In this document: one piece after another, positions 9,779-46,387 of the stretch | Numbering within the stretch: the first letter of the stretch is position 1 | Layout: every line of letters starts with the position of its first letter | From: Bacteroidales bacterium | GTDB taxonomy: Bacteria; Bacteroidota; Bacteroidia; Bacteroidales; Bacteroidaceae | DNA length: 64,000 nt | NCBI GenBank assembly: GCA_012517855.1 | Contig: JAAYUD010000068.1 | Coordinates: 1-64,000 of the forward strand | Direction: 5' to 3' | Notes under the pieces: generated by a model | What the model was told of the DNA's origin: nothing | Databases searched by the model: none | Seen by the model: the letters and a program-made list of their open reading frames with translations, nothing else | Translations under genes and position numbers: made by a program

Positions 9779-9864
9779 TGTCTCACACGTGTGCGACACT
9801 TGTCTCACAGCTGTGATACAGGTGTCGCACAACCGTGATATAAGTGTCTCACAGCTGTGAGACG
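9779..9864. repeat. Palindrome array A: four units, 22-bp period
   Basis: Palindrome centres fall at 9788.5, 9810.5, 9832.5 and 9854.5, exactly 22 bp apart. Units read TGTCTCACACGTGTGCGACA, TGTCTCACAGCTGTGATACA, a looser third copy with core CACAACCGTG, and the perfect GTCTCACAGCTGTGAGAC. The two halves of the array are also inverted copies of each other. It lies in the predicted leader of the HU-like gene. Confidence 0.9.
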
Positions 9865-9878
9865 CTAACTACATACTA

Positions 9879-9910
9879 CAAAGATAACTCTTTTTCAGTT
9901 AATATACAAA
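9879..9910 (-). promoter_or_regulatory. Promoter of the HU-like gene
   Basis: On the minus strand TTTG (9910-9907), 20 bases, then TATCTTTG (9886-9879) matches the Bacteroidetes consensus at all fixed positions. It places transcription start upstream of array A. Confidence 0.7.
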
Positions 9911-10101
9911 CGTTACTTCGGTCCCATTATACCGCTATTAATTTGCATTAAATAATAAAAATAACAACTGGCGAACAGCATACGAACCGCCTATTAAACA
10001 ATCCATCAAGATGAATAAATTGAAAACAGAAGAAAGTGCAAAAAACGAGCACAAGTTAAAAAGAATCATGCAACAATAGGACAACTTTTTCAAAGATAGT
10101 T

Positions 10102-10329
10102 ATGAAGTCCATTTCAATATATTGTCCAGTCGGACTGGAAGGAAACAACGACCATCTACAGCTCTCCATATCACAACTGTATGAAACACTGCGTAGAAAA
10201 AGTCCTTCAACCATGCGCGATATCAAAGTAGCAGCCTTCGTCGAACACCTCGCGATGCTGGATGTGCCCAAATTCCGTACCACTGCAGGTTTCGTATATA
10301 TGGTTAAAAAAGTATCAGAATATCGATGA
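10102..10329 (+). CDS. Small protein of unknown function (75 aa), possibly a gene remnant
   Basis: I do not recognise this family. The frame uses codons like its neighbours and reads as a plausible small globular protein (STMRDIKVAAFVEHLAMLDVP, TTAGFVYMVKKVSEYR). A short frame just upstream (10010-10078, MNKLKTEESAKNEHKLKRI) ends in a stop in another register. The pair could be a broken longer gene or an unrelated upstream peptide. Its stop codon falls inside the second copy of the dispersed repeat. An overlapping minus-strand frame looks less protein-like. Weak call. Confidence 0.35.
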   Translation: MKSISIYCPVGLEGNNDHLQLSISQLYETLRRKSPSTMRDIKVAAFVEHLAMLDVPKFRTTAGFVYMVKKVSEYR

Positions 10330-10414
10330 ATGTTCACCTCGAAATACGTTCCGAAAAACGAGTTGGATATAAGCGCTTATTGTTCAGCGATTTGTTGCGT
10401 CAATGGGGTGTGCA
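10328..10414 (-). repeat. Dispersed inverted repeat, copy 2
   Basis: Reverse complement of 7883-7968. This copy contains a perfect 12-bp palindrome ATAAGCGCTTAT (10369-10380), where copy 1 has a weaker AT-only version. It overlaps the last codons of the small frame at 10102-10329. Confidence 0.85.
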
Positions 10415-10833
10415 CACATAAAAAAAAGATTCATAATAGAAGCAGCATTGTTTATTGCTATTCGTTATAAGAACGAAATTATATTTAAATATTCAGTCAA
10501 ACGAAGAAATTATCCAAGTTATTGTAATAACTTGCACCCGAAACAATTAAGTTTGTATTGAAATTTTTATTTAGCAATATTTTCCCCTCATCTTTTTTTT
10601 CGGGGTTTTTCTTCGCCATAATTAATAGAATTCAGCTTTTTTTGTTGGCATTATTAAGGTTCGCACGTCATTACAGATACATCATGCGAATCCAATTTAT
10701 GTGTTTGTACGTAATAATTATCACATGGGCAAAAAGCCCGACTTCTTCATGTGCTTTTTATTGCAGCTATTTAAGTAGAAAAAAAGATTGCGATAGAACG
10801 CAATCATACAACTTTATGACATTATAGTATAAA
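10415..10833. other. Intergenic region with short inverted repeats
   Basis: No convincing gene. A near-perfect palindrome CAAGTTATT-GT-AATAACTTG lies at 10515-10534, and TTCGTT/AACGAA arms occur near 10460. A GGGC-A5-GCCC hairpin with outer CACATG/CATGTG arms lies near 10725-10755. These could be operator or leader elements for the flavoprotein gene at 10834, but nothing ties them to a known regulator. Confidence 0.35.
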
Positions 10834-11940
10834 ATGAAAAATTTATCTATCGGAGATTTAAAAATACGAATCCCCATCATTCAAGGTGGAATGGGCGTAG
10901 GTATCTCCTTATCCGGCTTAGCCTCGGCCGTTGCAAACGAAGGAGGTGTTGGTGTGATTTCATGTGCCGGCCTAGGGCTTTTGTATAATAATTTATCAAC
11001 AAATTTTAGAGAAGCATGCATTTTAGGACTCAAAGAAGAACTGAAAACGGCTCGTGAAAAGATAAAAGAAACACAACAAAAAGCTAAAGGCATCATAGGA
11101 GTTAATATTATGGTCGCTATGTCAAACTTTGCCGATATGGTGAAAACGTCCATATCAGAAAAAGTTGATATCATTTTCAGTGGAGCCGGACTTCCGCTCA
11201 ATCTGCCGGAATTTCTGGAGAAAGGAAGTAAAACGAAACTTGTACCTATTGTTTCATCAGCTCGTGCACTAGGAATTATTTGCGAAAGATGGCATAGCCT
11301 GTACAATTACCTTCCGGATGCTGTAGTAGTCGAAGGGCCAAAGGCAGGAGGACATCTGGGCTACAAAGAAAATCAAATCTTCGACGAACACTATTCGTTG
11401 GAAGAAATTTTGCCCCAAGTTGTAAGCGAAACCGCTATCTACGAAGAGAAGTACCATAAAAAGATTCCTGTCATTGCAGCGGGCGGCATCTATACCGGAT
11501 CTGACATATGCAAGATGATGGAATTGGGCGCTTCTGGAGTGCAATTGGGCACCCGGTTCGTCACGACAGACGAATGTGATGCTTCTATGGAATTCAAACA
11601 ACAATACCTGGATGCAAAAGAAGAAGATATTGAGATAATCAAAAGCCCCGTTGGTATGCCCGGCCGTGCAATCAGTGGTTTCTTTTTAAGCCAAGTGAAA
11701 GAAGGCATCAAACAACCCAAATATTGCCCTTTCCATTGCATAAAAACCTGTGACATATCCAAGAGTCCGTATTGTATTATGCTGGCTCTTTATAATGCCT
11801 TTAAAGGAAACTTTAAAAACGGATTTGCTTTTGCCGGTGCGAATGCTTATCGTAGCAGCCGAATAATGAGTGTAAAAAATACGATTTCCGAATTGATGAA
11901 TGAATGGAAAGAGAAAGAACTTTCTCTTAAGAAGAAATAA
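10834..11940 (+). CDS. Nitronate monooxygenase / FabK-like FMN oxidoreductase
   Basis: A 368-aa TIM-barrel flavoprotein of the 2-nitropropane dioxygenase/FabK superfamily. Motifs: IIQGGMGVGISLSGLASAVA near the N-terminus, VVVEGPKAGGHLGY carrying the conserved His region, and VIAAGGIYTGSDI with GASGVQLGTRFV for FMN phosphate binding. Members either oxidise nitronates or reduce enoyl-ACP, and sequence alone does not decide. The C-terminal part adds a four-Cys cluster (CPFHCIKTCDISKSPYC) absent from classic FabK, typical of a subgroup in anaerobes; it may hold a metal or Fe-S site. It stands alone, followed by a double hairpin terminator. Confidence 0.85.
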   Translation: MKNLSIGDLKIRIPIIQGGMGVGISLSGLASAVANEGGVGVISCAGLGLLYNNLSTNFREACILGLKEELKTAREKIKETQQKAKGIIGVNIMVAMSNFADMVKTSISEKVDIIFSGAGLPLNLPEFLEKGSKTKLVPIVSSARALGIICERWHSLYNYLPDAVVVEGPKAGGHLGYKENQIFDEHYSLEEILPQVVSETAIYEEKYHKKIPVIAAGGIYTGSDICKMMELGASGVQLGTRFVTTDECDASMEFKQQYLDAKEEDIEIIKSPVGMPGRAISGFFLSQVKEGIKQPKYCPFHCIKTCDISKSPYCIMLALYNAFKGNFKNGFAFAGANAYRSSRIMSVKNTISELMNEWKEKELSLKKK

Positions 11941-12014
11941 TGTGATATAAATTGCAATGTAATATCACAAAAAGACAGAGGGTTGCACTTATCGCATGAC
12001 GATAGGTGCAACCC
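11941..12014. terminator. Two tandem hairpins, bidirectional terminator
   Basis: TGTGATAT (11941-11948) pairs with ATATCACA (11962-11969). GGGTTGCACTTATCG (11980-11994) pairs with CGATAGGTGCAACCC (12000-12014) around a 5-base loop, with one G-T wobble. They lie between convergent genes. Confidence 0.75.
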
Positions 12015-12071
12015 TATATCGTTTTAGAACAATTGCATAATAAAATATTGTACAACAAAAGAAGACTCGGA

Positions 12072-13100
12072 TTAGTTGACTTCTTTTATTAAATAAATGA
12101 TAGTAGGTAAATGGTCGCTATAACCATTGAGCCATACTCCACCCGCATAAGTACGCTTGGGATATCCTTTATAATTGCCCTCAGTCTGTATCATATAGTC
12201 ACTGCGAAAGACTTCGTTCTTTAAAAATTTAAGGGTAGAACGATCGTCACCTAATAAACTACCATTAACAACTATCTGATCGAAAAGATTCCAATGACCT
12301 TTGTATTCCAACGTTCCAATGCCTTTAGAACGGAGCGTGTTCCACCATGGATTGTATAAATCGAATGGAGACTTCACCTCCTTCTGCTCACGACGAGCTC
12401 CCAGCTCTGTTTTCATACTGGCATCATCAGGGTCATCGTTCATATCGCCCATAATAATAATCTTCATCATCGGATTGATTGTCATTAATGAGTCTTTAAC
12501 ACTCTTAACCTGGAGTCCAGCCGATTCACGAAAGGGAGAACCGGAAAAACGAGATGGCCAATGATTGACTATTACAGCAAGATCCTCGCCGGCAAGTTTG
12601 CCTCTGACCACCAGAAAACCACGAGTTTTGAAAGCAGTATCACTAGTAGCATAAGGCACCAGACGCTTTGTGTCAACTTGAAAGAAACGAGAATTGTAGA
12701 TCACGGCACAATCCACACCACGACGATCGGGGCCTTCAATATGTACAAACTGGAAATTGCGCGAAGCCAATGCCTTCTGATGTACTAAATCGTCGAGTAC
12801 ATGGTCGTTCTCTACTTCAGAAACTCCGAGGATAGACAATCCCAAAGGCAACATATCTGTAGACATCTCTGATATAACTTGGCTCATATTGCTTAACTTG
12901 GCATGATATTTCTCTTCAGTCCACTTCATTGCACCGTCGGGCAAATATTCGTAATCGTTCTTGCCCTCATCATGATGAGTATCAAAAAGATTTTCCAAAT
13001 TATAAAACCCTACACTATAAACAGCATATTTTTTAGTCTGCGCCAAAGCGACAGATAAGAACAGCACAAACAAACAAAATGATAAAAATAATCTTTTCAT
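12072..13100 (-). CDS. Secreted endonuclease/exonuclease/phosphatase family protein
   Basis: The product from ATG 13100 is 342 aa with a signal peptide (MKRLFLSFCLFVLFLSVALA, cleavage after ALA). The EEP fold is shown by FYNLENLFD (metal-binding N/E), LGVSEVEND, VNHWPSR, IIMGDMNDDPDD and YSDHLPTIIYL (catalytic D-H). Such proteins hydrolyse phosphodiesters, in nucleic acids or lipids, outside the cytoplasm. An upstream in-frame ATG at 13151 would bury the signal peptide 17 residues in and is not used. It is divergent from the Dna2-like helicase. The substrate is unknown. Confidence 0.88.
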   Translation of the reverse strand: MKRLFLSFCLFVLFLSVALAQTKKYAVYSVGFYNLENLFDTHHDEGKNDYEYLPDGAMKWTEEKYHAKLSNMSQVISEMSTDMLPLGLSILGVSEVENDHVLDDLVHQKALASRNFQFVHIEGPDRRGVDCAVIYNSRFFQVDTKRLVPYATSDTAFKTRGFLVVRGKLAGEDLAVIVNHWPSRFSGSPFRESAGLQVKSVKDSLMTINPMMKIIIMGDMNDDPDDASMKTELGARREQKEVKSPFDLYNPWWNTLRSKGIGTLEYKGHWNLFDQIVVNGSLLGDDRSTLKFLKNEVFRSDYMIQTEGNYKGYPKRTYAGGVWLNGYSDHLPTIIYLIKEVN

Positions 13101-13310
13101 ATCTCTTATTGTTATAATAGGTAACACCTGAAACCAACTTCCAGACATCAAAAATATATTTTATTTTCGCCATATTTAAATTAAGAGTAACAAATTTTGA
13201 TTATTTTTGCATTACAATACATAAATACGAAGAACTATAGCAGACCTTTCCTTTTTGAAGAACTTAAATACCGACAATAAAAAGTAGTTATTAAAGGAAT
13301 CGGGTGAAAG

Positions 13311-16300
13311 ATGAATAGAATGGAACAATATAGCACTAAACCATATATTACAGCCCAATCTTTATTTGAAGATATATTGACATGCCATGAGAATGAGAGT
13401 ATGTCCATCAAAGAAAAGTATGAAGCAATGTACATCGACTTTCTAATGATGTTGAAAGAAAAGACAAAAGAAAGTAATATAGTATTCTCAGGTCCGTTCC
13501 CACGTATGACCTATTTATTTAAAAAGCATCAGATTCCCGAGCAAATTTATACCCATATCAATGGATTCAGAATTCGTGGCAGAGAAAACAGGTCAAAAGA
13601 TCAAACTGAACTAAAAGAAGCCTACAAATATGATCTAAAAGCATTGACGGAATTTATCTCAACCGTATATGGGGAAGAACCTAAAAATAAACTTAAACAA
13701 ATACTGCGGTTCCCGTATAAAACGTTTGAACGAAAAAAAACATTAGTAAGAAATATACGAATCGCTGTGGAAAATTGGAGCGAACAATATATATATGGTA
13801 GAAATGCTGTCAACGGAGGACCAGACATTATTAAAATAGATTATACCACAAAAGACATAAATGGAAACAATTTTGAATATTTCAAAGATATACTTTCTAT
13901 AAACTGCCAAATAAATGTAGTAGACCCACGTTTTGAAAACGGAATATACTATCCTGAACTGATGATTTATGAACCGGACTATCTGATAGACATTAGTTCG
14001 ATAGCCGCTTGTTTCACGGAATACGGTAATTCGGCAACTAATTATCTAATCAATAAAATAAAACCGGCAGTAATATCTACCCCTATTCTACTCGGTAATT
14101 TTGCGGGACAGCTTCTAGACGAATTGATCAATAATAAAGCACCGCATTCTATCAAATATTCAGAGAGTGTAAAAAAATTCTTTAAAAATCATGCTTTAGA
14201 TCTGGCTACGTGCGACAATATAAACGGTGATTTTCATATAAAGGCCAAACAACAATTAGAAAACCTGACAAACCTTATTTCAAAAACATTTAAAGAAGTT
14301 GATCATTTGCAATCCAATGAACTCGTCCTAGAGCCGTCTTTCTTATGCGAGAGACTTGGCATACAAGGGCGTATGGATTTGTTACAAACGGACTATCGAA
14401 TATTAATGGAGCAGAAGTCCGGACAACGGAACTTCAAAACCGGCAAACACAAAGAGGCACACTATGTACAAATGCTACTATACCAAGCCATACTACATTA
14501 TAATTATGGACTGAAGAATGAACAAATAACCAGTTTTTTACTCTATTCGAAATATCCTGACGGACTAATAGAAGAAGGTCCTGCCCCTAGACTACTCTTT
14601 GAAGCTTTGAAAATACGAAACGAAATAGTTAAGAACGAATTATCATATGTAAATGAAAAGCAGGTTAAAAAGATTTTTGAACTATTGACTCCTGAATATT
14701 TAAATATCCAGCATAGAGATGATAAATTATGGAAAGAATATCAACAACCACAGCTAAAAGAACTACTTGATTCTTATCATCAGGCTACTAAACTAGAAAA
14801 AGCATACTTTGAACGTCTTTTTTCTTTCGTGGAAAGAGAAAATATTTTGTCGAAAGTAGGCAGTTCGAATAACGAACGCGATGGTTTTTCTAGAATATGG
14901 AATGCAACTCTGGAAGAAAAGAAACAAACAGGTGACATTTACTACAATTTATTTATTCTAGAAAAAAAATGTACCCAACAAGATAGCGGATACGATGAAA
15001 TAACATTTCAGATACCAAAAGCGGAAGAGTGTTTTATATCAAACTTTCGAATAGGAGATGTCGTCATAATCTACCCTTACATTGAACGACAAGAGCCTAA
15101 TGCATTGCAAACAATGGTATTAAGAGGAAGTGTAAAAGAAATTCGAGACGAACGGATTGTCATCAAATTAAGAGCGCCCCAACGAAACGAGCAACTATTC
15201 AATAAAGATGAGAGATGGAAATGGAGTATTGAACATGATTTTATAGAATCATCGTATGGATCACTTTATAAATCTCTTTATTCTTTTTTTAGCGCTCGAA
15301 AAGAACGAAGAGAGCTACTACTCAATCAAAGACAAGCAAAATACGACAAATGCAAAACGTTGAACGGCGAGTATGGTACTTTTAATGAATTAGTACTTCG
15401 GGCAAAACAAGCACATGATTACTTTCTACTCATAGGACCACCGGGAACCGGTAAAACGTCTTTTGGACTAGTCAATATATTGGTCGAAGCCCTTACAGAT
15501 GCTGACACATCGATTTTATTAGCGTCATTTACTAATAGAGCAGTTGATGAGATTTGCGGTAAATTGGTTTGTCACAAAATACCTTTTATCCGTATAGGTT
15601 CCGAACTTTCGTGCGACCCAGCATACAGACAATATCTGTTATATAACAAAACAAAAGAATGCTCCGATGTGAATACTATCAAACAACTATTACATCGTAC
15701 ACGCGTTTTCGTAGGGACGACCTCCGCATTGACTGCAAAACTAAACATATTTAATGTAAAACATTTCGATTTAGCGATTATTGACGAGGCCTCTCAGATA
15801 TTGGAACCGCAACTACTTGGACTAATTTGTGCACAGTATAAAGAACGTAGTGCTATAGAAAAATTTATATTTATAGGTGATCATAAACAACTGCCTGCTA
15901 TAGTACAACAATCGGCAACAGAATCAGAAGTTGAAGAAGAGATATTAAGAAATATAGGGCTGACTAATTGCCGTGAATCTCTATTTGAAAGACTCATCAA
16001 GTTACAAAAAGGCAACCCCAGCATGAGTTATATGTTAACCAAACAAGGAAGAATGCATCCGGATGTAGCACAATTCTCAAATGAATCGTTCTATGAAAGT
16101 AAGCTGTGCCCAATACCACTCGAACATCAACGAAGAGAGCTGGATTATCCGATATATGACAAAAATAATAAAATAGAACGTATGATAGCTACCCAAAGAG
16201 TGTGTTTCATCGCTTCTAAAGCATGCACTACCCCATCCGTAAAAATCAACATACCTGAAGCTGAAAAAGTTGCTGAAATCATATACACCATTTGGCAACT

Positions 16301-16697
16301 CTATGTTAAATGTGGCAAAATCTTCGATGCAAATAGAACAATAGGTGTTATCGTGCCCTACCGTAATCAGATATCAACAATTCATAAAGAACTGAATAAG
16401 TATAGTATCGACGAACTACAAAACATTACAATAGATACAGTGGAGCGTTATCAAGGCAGCGAACGGGATATTATTATTTACGATTTCACCATCCACAAAT
16501 ATTATCAGCTAGACTTTCTAACGAATAATTCCATTTTTGAAAGCGGCAATCTGGTAGATCGAAAACTAAATGTAGCCCTAACTAGAGCCCGTGAACAACT
16601 TTTTTTGATAGGCAATCCAGATATTCTAAAAGGAAACGGAATATTTCGACATCTAATAGAGTATACTCAAAAAATAAAAGGATATATGCTATTTTAA
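13311..16697 (+). CDS. Dna2-like PD-(D/E)XK nuclease / superfamily 1 helicase
   Basis: A 1128-aa protein. Around residues 350-395 there is a Cas4/Dna2-type nuclease core: GRMDLL (Asp), LMEQKSG (Glu-x-Lys) and YVQMLLYQ (QxxxY-like). The C-terminal half is an SF1B helicase: Walker A LLIGPPGTGKTS (about residue 707), motif II LAIIDEAS (about 823), motif III FIGDHKQLPA, motif V TVERYQGSERDIIIYDF and motif VI LNVALTRAREQLFL (about 1086). The four-Cys iron-sulfur pattern of Cas4/Dna2 is not apparent. Expected role: 5' flap or end processing at replication forks or breaks, or defence. It stands alone between divergent and gapped neighbours, with no toxin, methylase or second defence gene next to it. 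Confidence 0.85.
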   Translation: MNRMEQYSTKPYITAQSLFEDILTCHENESMSIKEKYEAMYIDFLMMLKEKTKESNIVFSGPFPRMTYLFKKHQIPEQIYTHINGFRIRGRENRSKDQTELKEAYKYDLKALTEFISTVYGEEPKNKLKQILRFPYKTFERKKTLVRNIRIAVENWSEQYIYGRNAVNGGPDIIKIDYTTKDINGNNFEYFKDILSINCQINVVDPRFENGIYYPELMIYEPDYLIDISSIAACFTEYGNSATNYLINKIKPAVISTPILLGNFAGQLLDELINNKAPHSIKYSESVKKFFKNHALDLATCDNINGDFHIKAKQQLENLTNLISKTFKEVDHLQSNELVLEPSFLCERLGIQGRMDLLQTDYRILMEQKSGQRNFKTGKHKEAHYVQMLLYQAILHYNYGLKNEQITSFLLYSKYPDGLIEEGPAPRLLFEALKIRNEIVKNELSYVNEKQVKKIFELLTPEYLNIQHRDDKLWKEYQQPQLKELLDSYHQATKLEKAYFERLFSFVERENILSKVGSSNNERDGFSRIWNATLEEKKQTGDIYYNLFILEKKCTQQDSGYDEITFQIPKAEECFISNFRIGDVVIIYPYIERQEPNALQTMVLRGSVKEIRDERIVIKLRAPQRNEQLFNKDERWKWSIEHDFIESSYGSLYKSLYSFFSARKERRELLLNQRQAKYDKCKTLNGEYGTFNELVLRAKQAHDYFLLIGPPGTGKTSFGLVNILVEALTDADTSILLASFTNRAVDEICGKLVCHKIPFIRIGSELSCDPAYRQYLLYNKTKECSDVNTIKQLLHRTRVFVGTTSALTAKLNIFNVKHFDLAIIDEASQILEPQLLGLICAQYKERSAIEKFIFIGDHKQLPAIVQQSATESEVEEEILRNIGLTNCRESLFERLIKLQKGNPSMSYMLTKQGRMHPDVAQFSNESFYESKLCPIPLEHQRRELDYPIYDKNNKIERMIATQRVCFIASKACTTPSVKINIPEAEKVAEIIYTIWQLYVKCGKIFDANRTIGVIVPYRNQISTIHKELNKYSIDELQNITIDTVERYQGSERDIIIYDFTIHKYYQLDFLTNNSIFESGNLVDRKLNVALTRAREQLFLIGNPDILKGNGIFRHLIEYTQKIKGYMLF

Positions 16698-17058
16698 TCG
16701 GTTTTTAACACAACAATTATTTCATACAAAAAAACATTTTTTTTCTAACCTTCATGAATGGATGAAATATTTTCATTCATGAAAAGAAAAAGCCATTATT
16801 GAAGATTGAACACTATAACATGCACTTTAGATACTTTTTTTGCATCATAAACATAACTAGCAAAAAATATATTTATATACATTAAAAGAATAATATATTT
16901 TTATCATCCTGAATAAATGCAAAAAGCCTTTTGATTAAGCTCTGTACGAATCTAGATATAAAGATAAAGAATCTTGAAAGCATAGTTGTTATGCTACTTT
17001 TTTTTATTAATTTTGCCCTGAGTTTACAATAATAATTATATATAAAAGAAAAAGACTT
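16698..17058 (+). promoter_or_regulatory. Regulatory gap upstream of the export operon
   Basis: No gene here. An inverted repeat TTCATGAATG (16751-16760) / CATTCATGAA (16774-16783) lies downstream of the helicase stop. A promoter GTTG (16985-16988), 19 bases, TAATTTTG (17008-17015) precedes the wza-like ATG by about 43 bases. Confidence 0.55.
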
Positions 17059-17859
17059 ATGAAAATAAAGTTGAATATCTTGCTCATTACATTAGCATGC
17101 ATCGCTTTTACCTCGTGTCAATCTTATAAGACTATACCCTATTTACAAGGACTAGACAGCCTTAATTTGACCCAAGCCCAGGCTTTGCCTCGCGAAGCAC
17201 GAGTAATGCCACAAGATTTGGTAAGTATCATCGTATCATGTTCCAATCCAGAACTAGCTGTTCCATTCAATTTGAGTGTACAAACGGCTGTCAATGTTGC
17301 ACAACAAAACCAGTACACTACATCGCAACCAGTAATACAACAATATTTAGTTGATAGTGAGGGCAACATTGATTTTCCTATATTAGGTCATTTACATATA
17401 GGTGGAATGACCAGAACAGAAGTACAAGATTTGGTAAAATCAAAACTTAAACCATATATTAAAGAAGAACCAATTGTAACTGTCAGATTAGCAAATTTCC
17501 GAATATCTGTCATTGGTGAAGTAACAGATCCAGGTACATATAATATTACGAATGAAAAAGTGAATATATTTGAGGCATTGGCTCTAGCAAAAGATATGAC
17601 TGTTTATGGACGCCGTGAAAATGTACATGTGATTCGAGAAAACGCTAAAGGACATAAAGAAGTGGCAACACTGGATCTAAGTAAAGCAAACATATTACAA
17701 TCTCCTTACTACTATCTACAACAAAACGATATCGTATATGTAACACCCAATAAAGCTAAGGCAACAACAGCCGATATTACTTCAAGTACCACAATATGGT
17801 TTTCTATCGTCGGTTCTTTAATGTCTTTAGCCAGTATAATGATCGCATTATTTAGATAA
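17059..17859 (+). CDS. Wza-like polysaccharide export lipoprotein
   Basis: A 266-aa outer-membrane lipoprotein. The lipobox AFTSC follows a short hydrophobic leader (MKIKLNILLITLACIAF). The Poly_export domain covers roughly residues 45-130 (VMPQDLVSIIVS, YLVDSEGNIDFPILGHLHIGGMT) and an SLBB domain follows (ISVIGEVTDPGTYNI). A hydrophobic C-terminal segment is present (TIWFSIVGSLMSLASIMIALF). It forms the secretion channel for capsule or exopolysaccharide together with the Wzc-like protein that starts 10 bases downstream. No flippase, polymerase or glycosyltransferase is in the window. Confidence 0.92.
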   Translation: MKIKLNILLITLACIAFTSCQSYKTIPYLQGLDSLNLTQAQALPREARVMPQDLVSIIVSCSNPELAVPFNLSVQTAVNVAQQNQYTTSQPVIQQYLVDSEGNIDFPILGHLHIGGMTRTEVQDLVKSKLKPYIKEEPIVTVRLANFRISVIGEVTDPGTYNITNEKVNIFEALALAKDMTVYGRRENVHVIRENAKGHKEVATLDLSKANILQSPYYYLQQNDIVYVTPNKAKATTADITSSTTIWFSIVGSLMSLASIMIALFR

Positions 17860-17868
17860 AACACAAAG

Positions 17869-20346: not shown

Positions 20347-20368
20347 TTTTTTTCTTTTCGAAAATTAG

Positions 20369-28361: not shown

Positions 28362-28428
28362 TAAAAGTTGGATTATCATATTCTTAAAATCGGAATATAA
28401 GAAAAAAAGTATTCATCCTTATATCGCT

Positions 28429-28510
28429 TGCGACTCACGCCCGTGAGTCGGAAAAAACATAAGTACGAAATTTGCGACTCACGGGCGTGAGTCGCAAGTT
28501 TCGTACTTAT
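28429..28510. repeat. Palindrome array B: two units 44 bp apart, second within a 52-bp hairpin
   Basis: Unit 1 is CGACTCACG-CC-CGTGAGTCG (28431-28450, centre 28440.5). Unit 2 is CGACTCACG-GG-CGTGAGTCG (28475-28494, centre 28484.5). Unit 2 extends outward, with one mismatch, to arms of 26 bases covering 28459-28510 (ATAAGTACGAAA on the left, TTTCGTACTTAT on the right). It lies between convergent genes and may end transcription from both sides. Confidence 0.9.
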
Positions 28511-34607: not shown

Positions 34608-34608
34608 A

Positions 34609-36432: not shown

Positions 36433-36544
36433 CTTACTAACACTCTACTAAAAAATAATAGAGTACGATACAAATATCGAAAATTATTTGCTAATACCCG
36501 ATATATAAATTATATTTGAAACCAGAAAAAGTAATCCCGCTTTT

Positions 36545-36592: not shown

Positions 36593-36650
36593 AAAATAAA
36601 AAGGCAGCCAACAGCTACCAAGTATTATTAACCAATTAAAAAGTAAGCTT

Positions 36651-37055: not shown

Positions 37056-37070
37056 GAAACATATTAAAAC

Positions 37071-37109
37071 AATAATCGGCTGCTTAATAAAACTAAGCAG
37101 CCGATTATT
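37071..37109. terminator. Bidirectional terminator
   Basis: AATAATCGGCTGCTTA (37071-37086) pairs perfectly with TAAGCAGCCGATTATT (37094-37109) around 7 bases, between the convergent doxX-like and reductase genes. Confidence 0.9.
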
Positions 37110-37132
37110 CTTTATTTGAGTATCTATTAATA

Positions 37133-38536: not shown

Positions 38537-39104
38537 ATTTATACGAATTTATCTATTATTGCTTACAAAAATAGAATTTTTATATTAATAATCAGTATAT
38601 ATACCAATAAAATATTTGTAATGATTGACCTAAATGATATTCATTTAGACTACACAAACATGATGTGAATATGCACTAATACTTGTGTTCGGGATAAGAG
38701 CTCAACACTCCAAACAATGTCACTTTTATCATCAACATTTGCTCTCGTCAGACAAAAGTATTCCGACTAGTGTTTCGCAAAAAAAAGTTTCAAAACTCTA
38801 TCCGTCATATTATCTTATTGGTTATGAACGACATATACAGATACGGTTTGTTTATGGGACCTAAGGAAGGTATTATCTTGCTTATTGTTAGAGTCTTATG
38901 AAACGTGGCTCGCCCACGTCGTATATCAACCGATTAAATTACTACTCGGTATCTGTGTTGTGTGCACCGTGCAGAAACTCCCTTGCTTACTGCTCATACG
39001 TGGAAATAGTACGGTTCTTCTTCTCTGCAAGAAGATGCTTTGTACACATCTTATTGAAACATGGATCTCCTATTTAAAGTCTTTTTGTTGACTCATTCAG
39101 GTTT

Positions 39105-39196
39105 TGTCGTTCCACATATGTGATTCGATCAACTCACATATGTGAGTCGATCGTTCCATATATGTGAGTTGATCGAATCACATATGTGGAACGACA
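39105..39196. repeat. Palindrome array C: four units, 22-bp period, inside a 92-bp inverted repeat
   Basis: The core CACATATGTG (CATATATGTG in unit 3) recurs with centres at 39117.5, 39139.5, 39161.5 and 39183.5, exactly 22 bp apart. The whole block is a giant palindrome about 39150.5: 37 bases of perfect arm (39105-39141 against 39160-39196) begin with TGTCGTTCCACATATG and include GATCAACTCACATAT. Confidence 0.93.
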
Positions 39197-39445
39197 TTCT
39201 TCTCAGAACAAAACATAAAATCGTTCTGATATGAACCAATTTTCATCAGTATGCTTCACAAACTTCGCCTTTCTAAAAACGATCACGGGATTCATTGATT
39301 CTAAGCAAAAAGATATTTATCGACTGTTCATACCGATAAACATAGAAGCCTCAAAGCCCTTACAGACCAATGGATAGCACCAAAAGCGCTATAAGCAAGT
39401 GAGATTATTTAATTATTTTTCTCTATTTATTATAAATAAAAGAAT

Positions 39446-39453
39446 TATATTTG
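39446..39453 (+). promoter_or_regulatory. -7 promoter box for the hdr-flx operon
   Basis: TATATTTG, about 82 bases before the hdrC ATG. A clear TTTG is not found at the right -33 spacing. Confidence 0.4.
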
Positions 39454-39535
39454 TGGCAGAATAACAATTTCATATAATAAAGGGGTTGTGTAACTGATTA
39501 AAATATACCATGAAATCTATTTATCTATAATATAT

Positions 39536-40087
39536 ATGACAACGAATCATGCAATTACTTCTCGTATTCAACAGGCGACTGAAGTCGATGTCGATTTGTG
39601 TTATCAATGTGGCAAATGCACCGCAGGTTGTGTACTTGCCGACGATATGGAATTCCCTTCATCGTATCTCATCCGACTGTTACAAACGAATAAAGAAGAA
39701 AATTATAGCAAAGTACTAAAGTCCAACACAATATGGTTGTGCTTGAACTGCGAAAATTGTATCGGCAGATGTCCTAAAGAAGTGGATATTCCACGACTAA
39801 TGGATTATCTAAGAACCGAATCCATTAAAAGGAAATGTGTCTCACCTAAAGCAAAACCAATTTTGTCTTTTCATAAGTCTTTTTTGAATAGCATACGTTA
39901 TACGGGTAAGTTGAATGAAATCAATCTTATCGCCGAGTTCAAACTTCGTACCATGCGTCTATGGCAAGATGTGAAGTTGGTGCCCTCAATGCTTATCAAA
40001 GGAAAGCTCAAATTTCTACCCGAAACGGTAAAAAATAGAAAAAACATTATTCGCATTTTTAATAGAACTATCAAAAACACCAAATAA
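39536..40087 (+). CDS. hdrC: Heterodisulfide reductase subunit C
   Basis: A 183-aa iron-sulfur protein with two [4Fe-4S] motifs, CYQCGKCTAGC and CLNCENCIGRCPKEVDIP, in the HdrC arrangement. HdrC passes electrons from HdrA to the disulfide-reducing HdrB. It is the first gene of a seven-gene operon. The next start is only 9 bases after its stop. The C-terminal half lacks membrane segments, so this is the soluble HdrABC type rather than HdrDE. Confidence 0.92.
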   Translation: MTTNHAITSRIQQATEVDVDLCYQCGKCTAGCVLADDMEFPSSYLIRLLQTNKEENYSKVLKSNTIWLCLNCENCIGRCPKEVDIPRLMDYLRTESIKRKCVSPKAKPILSFHKSFLNSIRYTGKLNEINLIAEFKLRTMRLWQDVKLVPSMLIKGKLKFLPETVKNRKNIIRIFNRTIKNTK

Positions 40088-40096
40088 TAGTACTGT

Positions 40097-40942
40097 ATGA
40101 AATTAGGTTTTTATCCGGGATGCTCATTGCAAGGAACATCTCGAGAATATAACGAATCGGTAAAAGCATTGGCTCCATTTTTTGATATAGAACTGATAGA
40201 TATTGAAGATTGGAATTGTTGCGGTGCCACTGCTGCCCATTCCGTTAATAAAGATTTGTCATTGGCTCTTCCGACCCGAATACTGGCTCTAGCAGAAAAA
40301 CAGGGAATGAAAGAAATAGTTGTGCCTTGTGCATCATGCTTTAATCGTTTGTCGGTGACACAATATGAACTGGCAGAAGACAAAGAACTCAAGAAAAAAA
40401 TAACAGATACGATTGATATGCCATACGAGGGAACTGTTAAGATACTCAACGTGGTACAATTTATCGATCAATATATAAAAGATAAGCTTACTGAAAAAAT
40501 AGTAAAGCCTTTCAATTATAAAGTAGCCTGCTACTATGGATGTCTGTTAGTACGGCCTCACAAAATATTAAAATTCGACAGAGTAGAAGACCCTACTTCT
40601 ATGGACGAATTGATGAAGATGATTGGTTCAACTCCCATTGAATGGGGATTCAAAACAGAATGTTGCGGAGCCGGATTGTCGGTATCTCGTACTGATTTGG
40701 TAGCAAAGCTATCTGGCAATATTGTCAAAGATGCTGCTGATCGTGGAGCCGAAAGTATTATTGTAGCTTGCCCCATGTGTCATTCCAATTTGGATATGCG
40801 TCGTCCCGAGATTAATAAATATTTAAAAGAAGATGTGACGGTTCCAGTAATCTACCTTACCCAAGCTATTGGATTAGCTGTTGGAGCTGACCCCTCCAAA
40901 CTAGGTTTGCAACGTCACTTCGTTAAAGTAACTACCCTCTAA
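40097..40942 (+). CDS. hdrB: Heterodisulfide reductase subunit B
   Basis: A 281-aa protein with two intact CCG domains: CSLQG...NCCGATAAH...VVPCASC and CYYGC...ECCGAGLS...VACPMCH. In archaeal HdrB these cysteines hold two noncubane [4Fe-4S] clusters that split the heterodisulfide CoM-S-S-CoB. The methanogenic substrate is not expected in this organism, so another protein or small-molecule disulfide must be the target. In sulfate reducers this is DsrC, and no dsrC gene is in the window. It is placed between hdrC and hdrA. Confidence 0.95.
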   Translation: MKLGFYPGCSLQGTSREYNESVKALAPFFDIELIDIEDWNCCGATAAHSVNKDLSLALPTRILALAEKQGMKEIVVPCASCFNRLSVTQYELAEDKELKKKITDTIDMPYEGTVKILNVVQFIDQYIKDKLTEKIVKPFNYKVACYYGCLLVRPHKILKFDRVEDPTSMDELMKMIGSTPIEWGFKTECCGAGLSVSRTDLVAKLSGNIVKDAADRGAESIIVACPMCHSNLDMRRPEINKYLKEDVTVPVIYLTQAIGLAVGADPSKLGLQRHFVKVTTL

Positions 40943-40957
40943 AAAAGCATAACGAAC

Positions 40958-42961
40958 ATGTCAAGAATAGGAGTTTTTATTTGTCATTGCGGTGAAAATA
41001 TCAGTGCAACGGTAGACTGTGAACGTGTGGCACAAGAGGCCGGTAGATTGGAAGGCGTAGAATTTGCGACCGATTATAAATACATGTGTTCCGACCCAGG
41101 ACAAACGCTGATAAAGAACGCTATCAAAGAACACCATCTCGATGGAGTTGTAGTAGGCTCATGCTCTCCACGTATGCACGAAGCCACTTTCCGCAAGACT
41201 TGTGCTGAGGCAGGACTTAATCCGTATATGTGCGAAATAGCCAACCTCAGAGAGCATGTATCTTGGGTACATGAAAAGGGAGAAGCGACAACCCGCAAAG
41301 CAATCCAAATTGTAACGGGATTAATCTCGAAAGTACAACGCAACAAACCACTTAATACAATTAAAGTACCTGTTACAAAGTGTGCGTTGGTCATCGGAGG
41401 AGGTATTGCAGGCATTCAAACAGCACTCGATATAGCCAATTGTGGACAGAAAGTCATCATGATAGAAAAAAGTCCTTCTATTGGCGGACACATGTCACAG
41501 TTATCAGAAACATTTCCCACTCTCGACTGTTCGCAGTGTATCCTTACACCCCGAATGGTAGAAGTGGCGCAACATCCCAATATTACCTTATACACTTATG
41601 CCGAACTCGATAAGTTGGAAGGCTTCGTAGGCAATTTCAAAGCGACTATCAGGCTGAAGGCAAAAAGTATAGACTATTCCAAATGTACAGGTTGCGGACT
41701 TTGTACAACAAAATGTCCCAACAAAAAGATACCGAGCGAATTCAATGAAGGATTGGGCATGCGCACTGCCATATATGTACCTTTCCCTCAAGCTGTACCC
41801 AATAAGCCGGTGATAGATAAGGAACATTGTTTGTACTATCAAAAAGGTAAATGCAAGATTTGTTCTAAATCTTGCCCTACCGGAGCAATAGAGTACGACA
41901 AGCCGGATGAATTTATGACGATAGAAGTTGGTGCTGTAGTTGTAACTACAGGATTCAATGTATTGAAAACAGACTTTTTCCCTGAGTATGGCTATGGCAA
42001 ATACAAAGATGTTATCACAGGATTACAATTTGAACGCCTTGCTTCGGCTTCCTGGCCTACTCTTGGCGAAATACGCCGCCCTTCGGATGGGAAGATTCCT
42101 CAAAAGGTCGTATTTATAGCATGCTGTGGCTCACGCGACCCGGCCAAAGGTATTCCCTATTGCTCAAAGATCTGTTGTATGTACACAGCCAAGCATGCCA
42201 TGCTCTATCAGCATAAAGTGCATGGTGGAGATTCAACCGTATTCTATATGGATATCCGTGCCGGTGGCAAAAACTACGAAGAGTTTGTTCGACGTGCCAT
42301 TGAAGAAGACCACGTAAACTATGTACGTGGACGTGTGGCTCGAGTGTATGAAAAAGATGGAAAGCTTATTGTAAAAGGTGTAGACACATTGCTTGGAGCC
42401 GAACCTGTAGAAATAGAAGCAGATATGGTAGTCCTTGCCACAGCAGGCGTTGCCAGCAAGGGAGCCGAAGAACTAGCTCAGAAAATGCATATTTCATACG
42501 ACCCGTATCATTTCTTTGCCGAAGCACATCCCAAACTGAAACCGGTAGAAACAAACACAGCCGGTATATTCCTTGCCGGCGCTTGTCAAGCTCCTAAGGA
42601 CATTCCGGAAACGGTAGCTGCCGCTTCGGGTGCCGCGGTAAAAGTAGTATCACTGCTCTCGCAAGAAAACTTAGTGAGAGAGCCGATCGTAGCGGTTGTC
42701 AACCGTTGTGCCCCTCCCCTATTCAGTACATGCGTAGGATGTTTCATGTGCGAAACGATATGCCCATACCATGCCATTGAGCATGAAGAAATAAAAGACA
42801 GAAAGACAGGGGCAGTTATCAAAACCATTGCCAAAATCAATCCGGGACTTTGTCAAGGTTGCGGCACTTGTGTATCATTCTGCCGCTCCAAGTCCATAGA
42901 CCTCGAAGGATACACCAACGAAGAAATGTATACCGAAGTAATGGCACTGTTGAATCATTAA
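40958..42961 (+). CDS. hdrA: Heterodisulfide reductase subunit A (flavin-bifurcating)
   Basis: A 667-aa flavoprotein. It has an N-terminal Fe-S part (VFICHCGENIS), a thioredoxin-reductase-like FAD domain (CALVIGGGIAGIQTALDIA, MIEKSPSIGGHMSQLSETFPTLDC) and four further cluster motifs: CTGCGLCTTKCPN, CKICSKSCPTGAIEY, CVGCFMCETICPY and CQGCGTCVSFC. HdrA FAD is the site of flavin-based electron bifurcation in the Hdr complexes. The full set of cluster motifs is present, and no truncation is seen. It starts 15 bases after hdrB and is followed by the MvhD-like gene. Confidence 0.95.
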   Translation: MSRIGVFICHCGENISATVDCERVAQEAGRLEGVEFATDYKYMCSDPGQTLIKNAIKEHHLDGVVVGSCSPRMHEATFRKTCAEAGLNPYMCEIANLREHVSWVHEKGEATTRKAIQIVTGLISKVQRNKPLNTIKVPVTKCALVIGGGIAGIQTALDIANCGQKVIMIEKSPSIGGHMSQLSETFPTLDCSQCILTPRMVEVAQHPNITLYTYAELDKLEGFVGNFKATIRLKAKSIDYSKCTGCGLCTTKCPNKKIPSEFNEGLGMRTAIYVPFPQAVPNKPVIDKEHCLYYQKGKCKICSKSCPTGAIEYDKPDEFMTIEVGAVVVTTGFNVLKTDFFPEYGYGKYKDVITGLQFERLASASWPTLGEIRRPSDGKIPQKVVFIACCGSRDPAKGIPYCSKICCMYTAKHAMLYQHKVHGGDSTVFYMDIRAGGKNYEEFVRRAIEEDHVNYVRGRVARVYEKDGKLIVKGVDTLLGAEPVEIEADMVVLATAGVASKGAEELAQKMHISYDPYHFFAEAHPKLKPVETNTAGIFLAGACQAPKDIPETVAAASGAAVKVVSLLSQENLVREPIVAVVNRCAPPLFSTCVGCFMCETICPYHAIEHEEIKDRKTGAVIKTIAKINPGLCQGCGTCVSFCRSKSIDLEGYTNEEMYTEVMALLNH

Positions 42962-42970
42962 TCAGAAAGT

Positions 42971-43438
42971 ATGATGGAAGAATCTAATAATAATTTTGAA
43001 CCGCGTATCATTGCTTTTGTATGCAACTGGTGTACTTATGCGGGAGCCGATTTAACGGGAACGAGCCGCATAAAGTATGCGACGAACGTAGAAATAGTAC
43101 GTTTCCCATGTACCGGCCGAATAGACTTCATGTTGCTCCTGAAAGCTTTTGCCGGTGGAGCCGACGGTATTATCGTATCCGGCTGTCACCCTAACGACTG
43201 CCATTACACAAGTGGTAATTTTCATGCCCGACGCCGTTGGATTGTATTTCGCAATATACTCAATTTCTTAGGCATTGATGTACAACGTATTCGCTTCTCT
43301 TGGGTATCTGCAGCAGAGGGTGCCAAATGGGCGGACATAGTGAATGATACGGTAAAAGAGATTAGAGAATTAGGTCCGTATACGGAATACAAAAAAGTAG
43401 CGAACTATTTAGATGAGGAGGCCGATAGTCATGAATAA
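42971..43438 (+). CDS. flxD: MvhD/FlxD-like [2Fe-2S] electron-transfer subunit
   Basis: A 155-aa protein of the hydrogenase iron-sulfur (MvhD) family: IIAFVCNWCTYAGAD, VRFPCTGRID and VSGCHPNDCHYTSGN hold the five conserved cysteines. MvhD bridges a donor module to HdrA. Because no hydrogenase large subunit follows and FAD/NAD genes do, this is FlxD of the NADH-linked type. It uses ATG 42971 or 42974. Its last 8 bases overlap the start of the next gene (ATG 43431), indicating translational coupling. Confidence 0.92.
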   Translation: MMEESNNNFEPRIIAFVCNWCTYAGADLTGTSRIKYATNVEIVRFPCTGRIDFMLLLKAFAGGADGIIVSGCHPNDCHYTSGNFHARRRWIVFRNILNFLGIDVQRIRFSWVSAAEGAKWADIVNDTVKEIRELGPYTEYKKVANYLDEEADSHE

Positions 43439-44216
43439 ATTACAAGAAAGAGCAACCGATCTTCTTAAAGGAGGCACCGTTAAACTCATCATCGGATTCG
43501 AGCAAGGCAATAATAAGATACGTCCTTTTTTCTGCGAAAAACCCGAAGATGCAGAGAAACTGATATATAGTGACGACTGTAGTACCAATAATGCTGTCTA
43601 TCTGACCAAAAAAGAGTTGATCGGTGACAACAAAATTGCCATTATTGCAACATATAAAGAGATAGCAAGTATCATACAACTAAACAAAGAAAATCAAATA
43701 AAGAAAGAGAACCTCATGGTGCTAACCGTCGACAAAGACGGAGACGTAACAGAACTTACTTCTTTTGAAGAGATGGAAAAGTTTTGCGAAGAGAACACCC
43801 CTGCACCAGATCCCGTTGTGGCGGCTCTGATAGAGAAAATTGACAAAATGAACCGTGAAGAACGATGGGCCTATTGGAAATCCGAATTAGACAAATGCAT
43901 TCGTTGCTATGCTTGTAGAGCAGCGTGCCCATTGTGTTATTGCAACCGCTGCATCAGCGAGGTGAATTGTCCTCAATGGCTAGATCCTTGGAAATCGACG
44001 TTGAGCAATATCGAATGGCAAATCAATAGGGTGATGCATATGTCGGGACGTTGCACAGGTTGTGGCGCTTGCGCCAAAGCCTGCCCGCTAGACTTACCGA
44101 TAGGGATTCTTACAAAAAAGATGTCGACAGATATCAAAGAAATGTTGGGAGAAGGAGAAGGCGGCAATGTACTGTCTACTTTCAATCCGAACGATAAAGA
44201 GAACTTTATTCATTGA
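43431..44216 (+). CDS. 4Fe-4S dicluster subunit of the Flx module (FlxC-like)
   Basis: A 261-aa protein. The N-terminal half has no cysteine motif (KLQERATDLLKGGTVKLIIGF). The C-terminal half carries a Cys-rich block CIRCYACRAACPLCYCNRC and a second cluster CTGCGACAKACPLDLPIG. This layout is related to F420 hydrogenase/formate dehydrogenase beta-type proteins and to FlxC of Desulfovibrio. It should pass electrons between the NADH module and the FlxD-HdrA side. Naming against FlxB is tentative. ATG 43431 lies inside the previous gene's end; the frame is open six codons further upstream. Confidence 0.8.
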   Translation: MNKLQERATDLLKGGTVKLIIGFEQGNNKIRPFFCEKPEDAEKLIYSDDCSTNNAVYLTKKELIGDNKIAIIATYKEIASIIQLNKENQIKKENLMVLTVDKDGDVTELTSFEEMEKFCEENTPAPDPVVAALIEKIDKMNREERWAYWKSELDKCIRCYACRAACPLCYCNRCISEVNCPQWLDPWKSTLSNIEWQINRVMHMSGRCTGCGACAKACPLDLPIGILTKKMSTDIKEMLGEGEGGNVLSTFNPNDKENFIH

Positions 44217-44224
44217 TAGAGGTT

Positions 44225-45247
44225 ATGGAAAAATATATTATCAAAACAGAACAGATAGATGCATGGCTAAAACGAATCATTGAATCTGTACCCCGTGTCT
44301 TAGCACCTGTATCATCGGGAACAAAAACGGAATTCAGAAGAATAAAATCTCCCGAAGAAGTGAACAATAAGAGTCTCACAACTACCGTTTCAGCCAAAGC
44401 AGCCGCTTTCCCTCCTGTAGAGACTTTGTTTAAATATCAAAAAGACGGAAAAGATACAACATTAACAGAAGATTCTTTTGACAAATACCCAGAAACCGTT
44501 CTGTGGCATGCCCGTTCATGCGATGCAATGGGCTTCTCACCTCTTTCAGCCATTTTTGATTGGGACTACAAAGACAACATCTACGATGAACGACGCAACA
44601 AACTAACAATCGTTACTTTTGCCTGTAACCAAAGCGATGAATGTTGTTTCTGCACTTCGGTTGGTGGCGGTCCGGGCAATGTAGAAGGTAGTGATATACA
44701 ATTGACCATGTTGAACGCTACCGATACTTTGGTAGAAGTAATGACAGAAAAAGGTCAAAAACTAGTGGCGCTATTACCCGATATTTTCCAACCGCTATCA
44801 GAAGAGGTTGATAAAGAAGCTGTATTAGCTAAAATACCTGTTCAATTTACCAAAGAAGAAATCAAAGAACATGTATCGAATGCTTTCGATAGTCCCGTAT
44901 GGAAACGCCAGTCGGCACGCTGCCTTGGTTGCGGTGCGTGTGCATTCGTATGTCCAACATGTGCTTGTTTTGATATTCAGGAAGATGCCCATGGTAATCA
45001 CGGCAGACGTTTACGCTGTTGGGATGCTTGCGGATTTTCGCTGTTCACCCAGCATACATCGGGCTATAATCCTCGCCCTACCCAAGCCACCCGCTGGAGG
45101 CAACGAATTCTACACAAATTTTCTTATATGCCCGAACGGCTGGGCGTATATGGCTGTACCGGCTGTGGCCGTTGTTCAAGAGCTTGTCCTGTCGATATGA
45201 ATTTACAAGAACATTTAATCTCTATAGCCAACTCAAATCATGAATGA
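44225..45247 (+). CDS. 4Fe-4S subunit of the Flx module (FlxB-like; AsrA-related)
   Basis: A 340-aa protein from ATG 44225 (MEKYIIKTEQIDAWL); a TTG four codons upstream overlaps the previous gene and is not needed. It has the anaerobic sulfite reductase subunit A layout. The N-terminal half includes HARSCDAMGFSPL and FACNQSDECCFCTSVGGGPG. The C-terminal ferredoxin has two clusters, CLGCGACAFVCPTCACFD and CTGCGRCSRACPVDMNL. It is expected to pair with the FAD/NAD subunit encoded next, whose ATG overlaps its last 8 bases. Confidence 0.85.
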   Translation: MEKYIIKTEQIDAWLKRIIESVPRVLAPVSSGTKTEFRRIKSPEEVNNKSLTTTVSAKAAAFPPVETLFKYQKDGKDTTLTEDSFDKYPETVLWHARSCDAMGFSPLSAIFDWDYKDNIYDERRNKLTIVTFACNQSDECCFCTSVGGGPGNVEGSDIQLTMLNATDTLVEVMTEKGQKLVALLPDIFQPLSEEVDKEAVLAKIPVQFTKEEIKEHVSNAFDSPVWKRQSARCLGCGACAFVCPTCACFDIQEDAHGNHGRRLRCWDACGFSLFTQHTSGYNPRPTQATRWRQRILHKFSYMPERLGVYGCTGCGRCSRACPVDMNLQEHLISIANSNHE

Positions 45248-46076
45248 GAATATTTATTTACCACATATTATGGTAATTGATAAAATTACCGTTGAAGCCC
45301 CTGGCGTAAAGACTTTCCGCCTTAAATTTCAAAATGAAGAAGAAGGTAAAGCCTTTCAATTCCGAGCAGGAAACTTCGCCGAATATTCAGCTTTCGGCGA
45401 AGGAGAGTCTACCTTTTGCATCGCTTCTGCTCCGACAAGAAAAGAGTACGTAGAATGTACTTTTCGCCATGCCGGACGTGTGACTTCCGGCCTTAACCGC
45501 CTTGAAGAAGGTCAGACAATGGGATTTCGTGGTCCATTCGGCAATTCATTTCCGATTGAAGAATGGAAAGGTAAAAATATACTTTTCGTAGCCGGAGGTA
45601 TTGCACTTCCCCCTATGCGTTGCGTCATTGACAATGTACTCGACTTGCGAGATCAGTTCGGCGATGTGACTATTGTTTATGGAGCCAAATCTGTGGCAGA
45701 CCTTGTATACAAAGAAGAACTAGCTGAATGGAACCAACGCTCGGATGTCAAACTTGTAACCACAGTCGATCCCGGTGGTGAGACACCCGATTGGAAAGGA
45801 GAAGTAGGTTTTGTCCCTAATGTTTTGGATAGTGTTGCCCCCAATAGCGACAATACCGTAGCGGTTGTATGCGGCCCTCCTATTATGATAAAATTCACAT
45901 TCCCCGTACTCGAGAAACATGGGTTTAAAGATGAGAATATTTACACGACACTCGAAAATAGAATGAAGTGTGGCGTAGGAAAGTGCGGCCGCTGCAATGT
46001 TGGCAAAATGTATGTTTGCAAAGATGGTCCAGTTTTCTCTAAAGTGCAACTCAACGATATGGCACCCGAATTCTAA
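45240..46076 (+). CDS. flxA: FAD/NAD(P)-binding oxidoreductase FlxA (AsrB-like)
   Basis: A 278-aa ferredoxin-NADP reductase-type protein. It has an FAD domain (CIASAPTRKEYVECTFRHAGRVTSGL), an NAD domain (LFVAGGIALPPMRCVIDN, VVCGPPIMIKF) and a C-terminal four-Cys [2Fe-2S] loop (MKCGVGKCGRCNVGKMYVCKDGP). It should oxidise NADH and feed the Flx-Hdr chain, or run in reverse. It is the last gene of the operon, followed by a strong terminator. Confidence 0.92.
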   Translation: MNENIYLPHIMVIDKITVEAPGVKTFRLKFQNEEEGKAFQFRAGNFAEYSAFGEGESTFCIASAPTRKEYVECTFRHAGRVTSGLNRLEEGQTMGFRGPFGNSFPIEEWKGKNILFVAGGIALPPMRCVIDNVLDLRDQFGDVTIVYGAKSVADLVYKEELAEWNQRSDVKLVTTVDPGGETPDWKGEVGFVPNVLDSVAPNSDNTVAVVCGPPIMIKFTFPVLEKHGFKDENIYTTLENRMKCGVGKCGRCNVGKMYVCKDGPVFSKVQLNDMAPEF

Positions 46077-46094
46077 TATCATAGAAAGCTATGT

Positions 46095-46139
46095 AAAAAC
46101 AAAACGAGGTGCGATATTGTCGTACCTCGTTTTGTTTTT
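46095..46139. terminator. Strong terminator of the hdr-flx operon
   Basis: AACAAAACGAGGT-GCGA-TATTG-TCG-TACCTCGTTTTGTT forms a stem of about 18 bp with one mismatch, followed by TTTTA. It starts 19 bases after flxA. Confidence 0.92.
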
Positions 46140-46263
46140 ACATTCCTAGTAACATATCATTGAGCTAAAAATAAGACAATTTGTAAAGAACTATTCAAAA
46201 GACAGTTTATCAAATTCGAGAGATATTGTTAATGTAAGTACAGGTTCTTTCTTAGTACAAAAA

Positions 46264-46387
46264 AACAGACGTATGTCGCAGCCATAACTAACGGAAGTTA
46301 CTGCGGTAACTAACGGATGTTGTCATGATAACTAACGTTAGTTTCTTCTGCGAGATACGTTAGTTATCGCTGCGACATACGTCAGAT
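46264..46387. repeat. Palindrome array D: six units, 22-bp period, inside a larger inverted repeat
   Basis: Palindrome centres lie at 46270.5, 46292.5, 46314.5, 46336.5, 46358.5 and 46380.5, all 22 bp apart. Inner units have core TAACTAACGTTAGTT or degenerate forms. The outer ends GACGTATGTCGCAGC and GCTGCGACATACGTC are perfect inverted copies, and with one mismatch the arm runs on through ATAACTAACG (26 of 27 bases). It lies between the hdr-flx terminator and the 3' end of the sigma gene. Confidence 0.9.

What the first reader, a model, noticed from the sequence alone, without database searches (positions are those of the whole stretch)
9779..46387. A family of 22-bp-periodic palindrome arrays at four separate intergenic sites
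Seen directly: arrays at 9779-9864, 28429-28510, 39105-39196 and 46264-46387 consist of short palindromes whose centres are exactly 22 bp apart (44 bp in the second). Cores differ per site (CACAGCTGTG, CTCACG..CGTGAG, CACATATGTG, TAACTAACGTTAGTTA), yet all half-sites look like (A/T)CT(C/A)AC followed by the mirror. Three arrays are also nested in a larger inverted repeat, and the fourth has a unit inside a 52-bp hairpin. The strict period with freely changing sequence suggests selection on geometry or folded structure (about two DNA turns, or stacked RNA hairpins) and within-locus homogenisation. I know of no named element of this kind; novelty is inference.
Basis: partly seen in the sequence, partly recalled or inferred. 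Interest (0 to 1): 0.85.

Follow-up and report, generated by a model that had tools for sequence, protein, structure and literature searches.

The report
HU-HIG-linked dispersed 22-bp palindrome arrays
The evenly spaced palindromes are real; the same four-unit, 22-bp design sits in front of nearly every gene for one type of DNA-binding protein in gut Bacteroidales, each gene with its own array sequence, and copies of such arrays are scattered through the genome, pointing to an undescribed protein-and-repeat partnership.

Summary
Units sit exactly 22 bp apart (44 at site 2), which shuffled DNA does not reproduce. The four arrays are not free-standing: each belongs to a different dispersed repeat family of this genome (about 17, 37, 35 and at least 40 places). 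The geometry is shared across Bacteroidales genera while the sequence is not.

Array 1 lies 42 bp upstream of an HU-HIG gene (HU domain plus C-terminal winged helix). Of 26 HU-HIG loci read, 19 of 20 with the winged helix carry such an array upstream, each with its own sequence; 0 of 6 without it do. Site 3 is a shrunken copy of a divergent HU-HIG/array/VapE locus. Families 1, 2 and 3 each have a copy beside an HU-HIG gene; family 4 has no known partner. In three named species an HU-HIG-upstream array also has copies elsewhere in the same strain.

Best reading: the array is the binding platform of its own HU-HIG paralogue, and copies spread as non-autonomous repeats, working like REPIN-RAYT but without the Y1 transposase, which this genome lacks. 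Binding, mobility and function are inferred. RNA-structure selection is not supported.

The parts
9779..9864 (.). Array 1: four 22-bp palindromic units (CAC-N4-GTG cores), 42 bp upstream of the HU-HIG start codon
   Evidence: array at -123 to -42; 4 units at exactly 22 bp; family of 17 places
9114..9737 (-). HU-HIG gene (HU domain plus C-terminal winged helix), the likely partner protein of array 1
   Evidence: PF18291 E=5.2e-26; C-terminal HMM hit; model with HU-like part and helix-helix-helix-wing C-terminus
28427..28506 (.). Array 2: two CTCACG-N2-CGTGAG palindromes 44 bp apart, member of dispersed family 2 (about 37 places)
   Evidence: one family-2 copy adjoins an HU-HIG gene at C52:17983-18348
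39105..39196 (.). Array 3: four CACATATGTG units, 22 bp apart, a 92-bp near-perfect inverted repeat; family 3
38763..39104 (-). Left arm of the family-3 element: decayed 5' part of an HU-HIG gene (full HU-HIG readable in copy L080)
   Evidence: extent; tblastn of window HU-HIG to L080 E=7e-26, 36% identity
39197..39277 (+). Right arm of the family-3 element: decayed 5' part of a divergent VapE-like gene (readable for about 250 aa in copy L174)
   Evidence: extent; tblastn 41-42% identity, E about 1e-73 to annotated VapE/DUF3874 proteins
46259..46391 (.). Array 4: six 22-bp units between an A-run and a T-run, member of family 4 (at least 40 copies); no HU-HIG partner found

Best explanation
The 22-bp palindrome array is the DNA-binding platform of a cognate HU-HIG protein. 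SHOWN: HU-HIG genes with a C-terminal winged helix have about four palindromic units at 22 bp (sometimes 21) within about 300 bp upstream of the start codon; each gene has its own sequence; families 1, 2 and 3 of this genome each have a copy beside an HU-HIG gene; copies are scattered, mostly at gene ends. INFERRED: the winged helices of a dimer read the two half-sites (often CAC-N4-GTG), the HU part bends or clamps the DNA, and four dimers stack on one DNA face because units are two helical turns apart, so the gene controls its own promoter. The array, alone or as a shrunken HU-HIG/array/VapE locus (family 3), spreads as a non-autonomous repeat, and protein and array diverge together. The enzyme that moves it is unknown.
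For: HU-HIG upstream regions against 793 other upstream regions: lag-21/22 score p=4e-10; best lag is 21 or 22 in 20 of 26 against 18%. Of 20 wHTH-bearing HU-HIG loci 19 have an array, of 6 without wHTH 0 do, Fisher p=3e-5. Combs of 3 or more CAC-N4-GTG units at 22 bp: 10 of 26 HU-HIG regions against 11 of 792 background; 0 HU-HIG regions at 19, 20, 21, 23 or 24 bp. Own genome: HU-HIG matches adjoin arrays at C17, C66 (family 1), C52 (family 2), C44, C70 and C76 (family 3). Another genus: Parabacteroides L360. HU-HIG-upstream arrays have copies elsewhere in the same strain: 6 other contigs in P. distasonis, 6 in P. massiliensis, 2 in B. finegoldii, under no annotated gene where the record is annotated. 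An array-less HU-HIG upstream region has no other copy. Family-3 arms are HU-HIG and VapE, the divergent arrangement annotated in L370, L372 and L374.
Against: No binding data. Family 4, the most numerous, has no HU-HIG neighbour among those listed and no CAC-N4-GTG comb. Dispersed copies avoid divergent promoters (6 of 60), so they are not a conventional regulon. Two other HU-HIG arrays (L374, L375) show few or no distant copies. The structure model is weak (pTM 0.39; no PDB match below E=0.001). Tandem arrays of 21-22 bp that are not palindromic are also common in these genomes and need not involve HU-HIG.
Confidence: 0.7

Rival explanations
1. BrickBuilt-type elements: MITEs containing a minisatellite, moved by an ordinary IS transposase, with HU-HIG only a frequent neighbour.
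For: Family 3 has left arm, array and right arm like BrickBuilt's leader, 23-nt repeats and tail (PMC4596501). Copies are intergenic and dispersed.
Against: The arms of family 3 are HU-HIG and VapE coding remnants. Family 4 shows no target-site duplication. The tie to the wHTH form of HU-HIG across genera is too regular for hitchhiking.
Confidence: 0.12
2. The array is an iteron-like replication origin of a small mobile element whose genes are HU-HIG and the divergent VapE-like, primase/helicase-type protein; dispersed copies are integrated or decayed remnants.
For: Array lies between divergent HU-HIG and VapE/BT4734/DUF3874 genes in L370, L372, L374 and L377. Sequence changes while spacing stays, as in plasmid iterons (general knowledge). 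Some HU-HIG loci are in fecal phage-like contigs.
Against: Many HU-HIG-array pairs stand alone among housekeeping genes, such as rpsL or recA, and this window's pair has no VapE beside it. No excised or circular form was looked for.
Confidence: 0.15
3. The arrays act as RNA: bidirectional terminators or RNase III-type hairpins at gene ends.
For: Dispersed copies are enriched between convergent genes, 31 of 60 against about 23%. Family 4 is flanked by A- and T-runs. RNA folding z-scores run from -4 to -14.
Against: Pairing in family 4 is no better than shuffled controls. Arrays upstream of HU-HIG genes lie in promoter regions. Exact 22-bp spacing is not needed for a terminator.
Confidence: 0.08
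4. Neutral minisatellites: slippage in Bacteroidales favours periods of two helical turns, and palindromes arise by template switching.
For: Intergenic tandem arrays in general peak at 21-22 bp here.
Against: Does not explain the tie to wHTH HU-HIG genes, the CAC-N4-GTG comb at exactly 22 bp, or 30 family-4 copies without one indel.
Confidence: 0.06

Closest known systems
REPIN-RAYT (REP palindromes with a Y1 transposase)
   Same: Extragenic palindromes in many copies, several families per genome, each tied to a protein gene; spread without evident target duplications
   Different: Partner is an HU-fold/winged-helix protein without transposase domain; no Y1 transposase in this genome; units in arrays of four at fixed 22 bp
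BrickBuilt MITE of Porphyromonas gingivalis (PMC4596501)
   Same: Bacteroidales, intergenic, dispersed, 23-nt tandem repeats between leader and tail
   Different: P. gingivalis/gulae sequence, IS5-like terminal repeats, not reported as tied to HU-HIG in the parts read; here 22 bp, palindromic, arms derived from HU-HIG and VapE
Iteron origins and centromere arrays of plasmids
   Same: Helically phased repeats beside the gene of their binding protein, sequence differing between replicons
   Different: Chromosomal, dispersed in tens of copies; no origin or partition function tested
HU-HIG proteins (PF18291)
   Same: The partner protein is a member
   Different: I know of no report of upstream palindrome arrays; the best-ranked papers of a search for 'HU-HIG' did not hold the term

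Membership tests
HU-HIG protein family (PF18291) | Match above the curated cut-off | tested here: met
   91.6 bits against cut-off 26.2
REPIN-RAYT | Y1 (TnpA-REP) transposase in the genome | tested here: not met
   PF01797: no match in a 99.9% complete genome; control genomes ring
REPIN-RAYT | Dispersed extragenic palindromes linked to a protein gene | tested here: met
REPIN-RAYT | Tetranucleotide tag (GTAG or CGTC) at the palindrome foot | not tested
   not scored
BrickBuilt-type MITE | Leader and tail flanking tandem repeats | tested here: inconclusive
   Family 3 yes, but the arms are HU-HIG/VapE remnants; families 1, 2 and 4 no
BrickBuilt-type MITE | Target-site duplication | tested here: not met
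   Family 4: longest shared flank word 4.97 against 5.11 shuffled
BrickBuilt-type MITE | IS5-like terminal inverted repeats (GAGACCTTTGCA type) | not tested
   not searched for
Iteron origin | Helically phased repeats beside their binding-protein gene | tested here: inconclusive
   Phased repeats beside a DNA-binding-protein gene are there; that this protein binds them is not shown
Iteron origin | Supports replication | not testable with these tools
   needs experiment
Known structured RNA (Rfam) | Match at gathering threshold | tested here: not met
   No match in the window

The most novel reading that the evidence does not exclude
wHTH-type HU-HIG proteins and their 22-bp arrays are a broad class of coevolving protein-repeat pairs in Bacteroidales: each paralogue recognises its own array, and the arrays form dispersed sequence populations placed at gene ends that are either selfish or organise the nucleoid. 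It would be a REPIN-RAYT-like system built on a nucleoid-protein fold instead of a transposase.
Probability: 0.45. Interest if true: 0.9.

Novelty: categorically new. Interest (0 to 1): 0.8.

Why it matters
HU-HIG proteins are common in gut Bacteroidales and, as far as I know, their DNA targets have not been described. If the pairing holds, every wHTH-type HU-HIG gene carries its own predicted binding site next to it, so specificity and protein-DNA coevolution become directly testable, and a large class of so far unexplained intergenic repeats in gut Bacteroidales gets a candidate partner.

Tried and rejected
REPIN-RAYT membership: no Y1 transposase. Selection on RNA structure: no excess pairing in family 4. 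Target-site duplication in family 4: none. Matches to plasmids, phages or Rfam: none for the queries tried. A family-3 pattern in the named genome collection: none. Conventional regulon for dispersed copies: they avoid divergent promoters. HU-HIG as neighbour of every array in other genera: mostly ordinary genes flank them, which fits dispersal.

Full report
OBSERVATION. A scan over periods 12-44 that demands both tandem repetition and reverse-complement symmetry finds sites 1 to 3 in the window and 11 arrays in 400 kb sampled from the same genome; every one is 22 or 44 bp, and shuffled DNA gives none.

FAMILIES. Each site is one member of a dispersed family in this 3.64-Mb genome: family 1 at 17 places, family 2 at about 37, family 3 at about 35, several at contig ends, family 4 at 40 or more. 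Family 4 copies align over 134 columns with no gap, at unrelated sites and without target duplications. Segments are inverted between copies with ends at palindrome centres: 12-bp spacers in family 3 and the inner 66 bp in 8 of 30 family-4 copies (by eye). Copies of families 1, 2 and 4 lie outside genes, favour convergent gene ends (31 of 60 against 23% expected) and avoid divergent promoters (6 of 60 against 26%).

OTHER GENERA. The same scan finds 22-bp (a few 21-bp) palindrome arrays with unrelated sequence in other genera of the same family and in named Parabacteroides, Tannerellaceae and Bacteroides; none in 480 kb from other families of the order and none in 100 kb of E. coli. TRF shows that intergenic tandem arrays in general peak at 22 bp: 13 of 16 in own DNA, 24 of 59 in the same family, 28 of 98 in named Bacteroidales, 0 of 2 in other families. 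So the palindromic arrays are one part of a wider 21-22 bp class, and I do not claim the HU-HIG link for all of it.

THE PARTNER. Array 1 lies 42 bp upstream of an HU-HIG gene. Searching the genome for HU-HIG shows matches directly beside family-1 arrays (C17, C66), a family-2 array (C52) and family-3 arrays (C44, C70, C76) (with 12-14). The arms of family 3 are the 5' parts of an HU-HIG gene and of a divergent VapE-like gene. To test this elsewhere I fetched 20 HU-HIG loci from plasmid and phage records using the window protein as query. Reading their upstream regions showed an array of about four units at 22 or 21 bp in most of them, each with its own sequence. With six loci already held (26 in all), the lag-21/22 score exceeds that of 793 other upstream regions (p=4e-10). 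Of 20 proteins with a C-terminal winged helix 19 have an array; of 6 without it none has (p=3e-5). Ten of 26 regions carry at least three CAC-N4-GTG units at exactly 22 bp against 11 of 792 controls. This core is the one shared by sites 1 to 3.

DISPERSAL ELSEWHERE. HU-HIG-upstream arrays of P. distasonis, P. massiliensis and B. finegoldii recur in 6, 6 and 2 other contigs of the same strain; the upstream region of an array-less HU-HIG gene does not. Two further arrays showed few or no clear distant copies. One array of a Parabacteroides MAG (L334) is absent from the matching site in P. distasonis (L326), about 107 bp shorter.

MECHANISM. A dimer of winged-helix HU-HIG on each palindrome, four dimers in phase every two helical turns, fits the geometry, the symmetry and the wHTH dependence. 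It is inferred; the predicted model only shows an HU-like part followed by a winged-helix-like part with modest confidence. How copies move is unknown.

CAVEATS. HU-HIG loci were found with a wHTH-bearing query, so wHTH-less forms are few. Presence of an array was judged from the lag score and by reading the sequence. Not all 26 loci are independent: several come from one strain, though from different genes. Genes were called with a simple ORF caller. The 'plasmid' records used carry housekeeping genes (rpsL, recA) and look chromosomal. Places counted for palindromic queries can include both strands, so I count contigs. The paper library holds no subscription journals, so an earlier description cannot be excluded.

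Noticed in passing
39105-39196 and family-3 copies L076-L105: 12-bp spacers between palindromes are individually inverted between copies, and the first and last spacer flip together, so the whole array stays an inverted repeat.
   Followed up: partly
46259-46391 and family-4 copies L106-L135: In 8 of 30 copies the inner 66 bp is inverted with breakpoints at palindrome centres.
   Followed up: partly
L178:15298 (G000:C66, about 35.3 kb): A fifth 22-bp palindrome family (TTTGGTCACGACCATACATATG) in the same genome.
   Followed up: no
L380, L381, L382: HU-HIG genes without winged helix lack the array; L380 and L381 sit with DUF4248 and an amidase or glucosaminidase gene.
   Followed up: partly
right or left of several family-4 copies, e.g. 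L109, L119, L120: A second shared module (GTTGTCGTATGTTAGTTTTTTCGGTGACGTCCTTA) adjoins some family-4 copies.
   Followed up: no
window 1433-1738: HU/IHF-like reading frame with internal stops, apparently a pseudogene or frameshifted copy.
   Followed up: no
L334:20460-20527 against L326: An array present in one Parabacteroides and missing at the matching site in another.
   Followed up: partly
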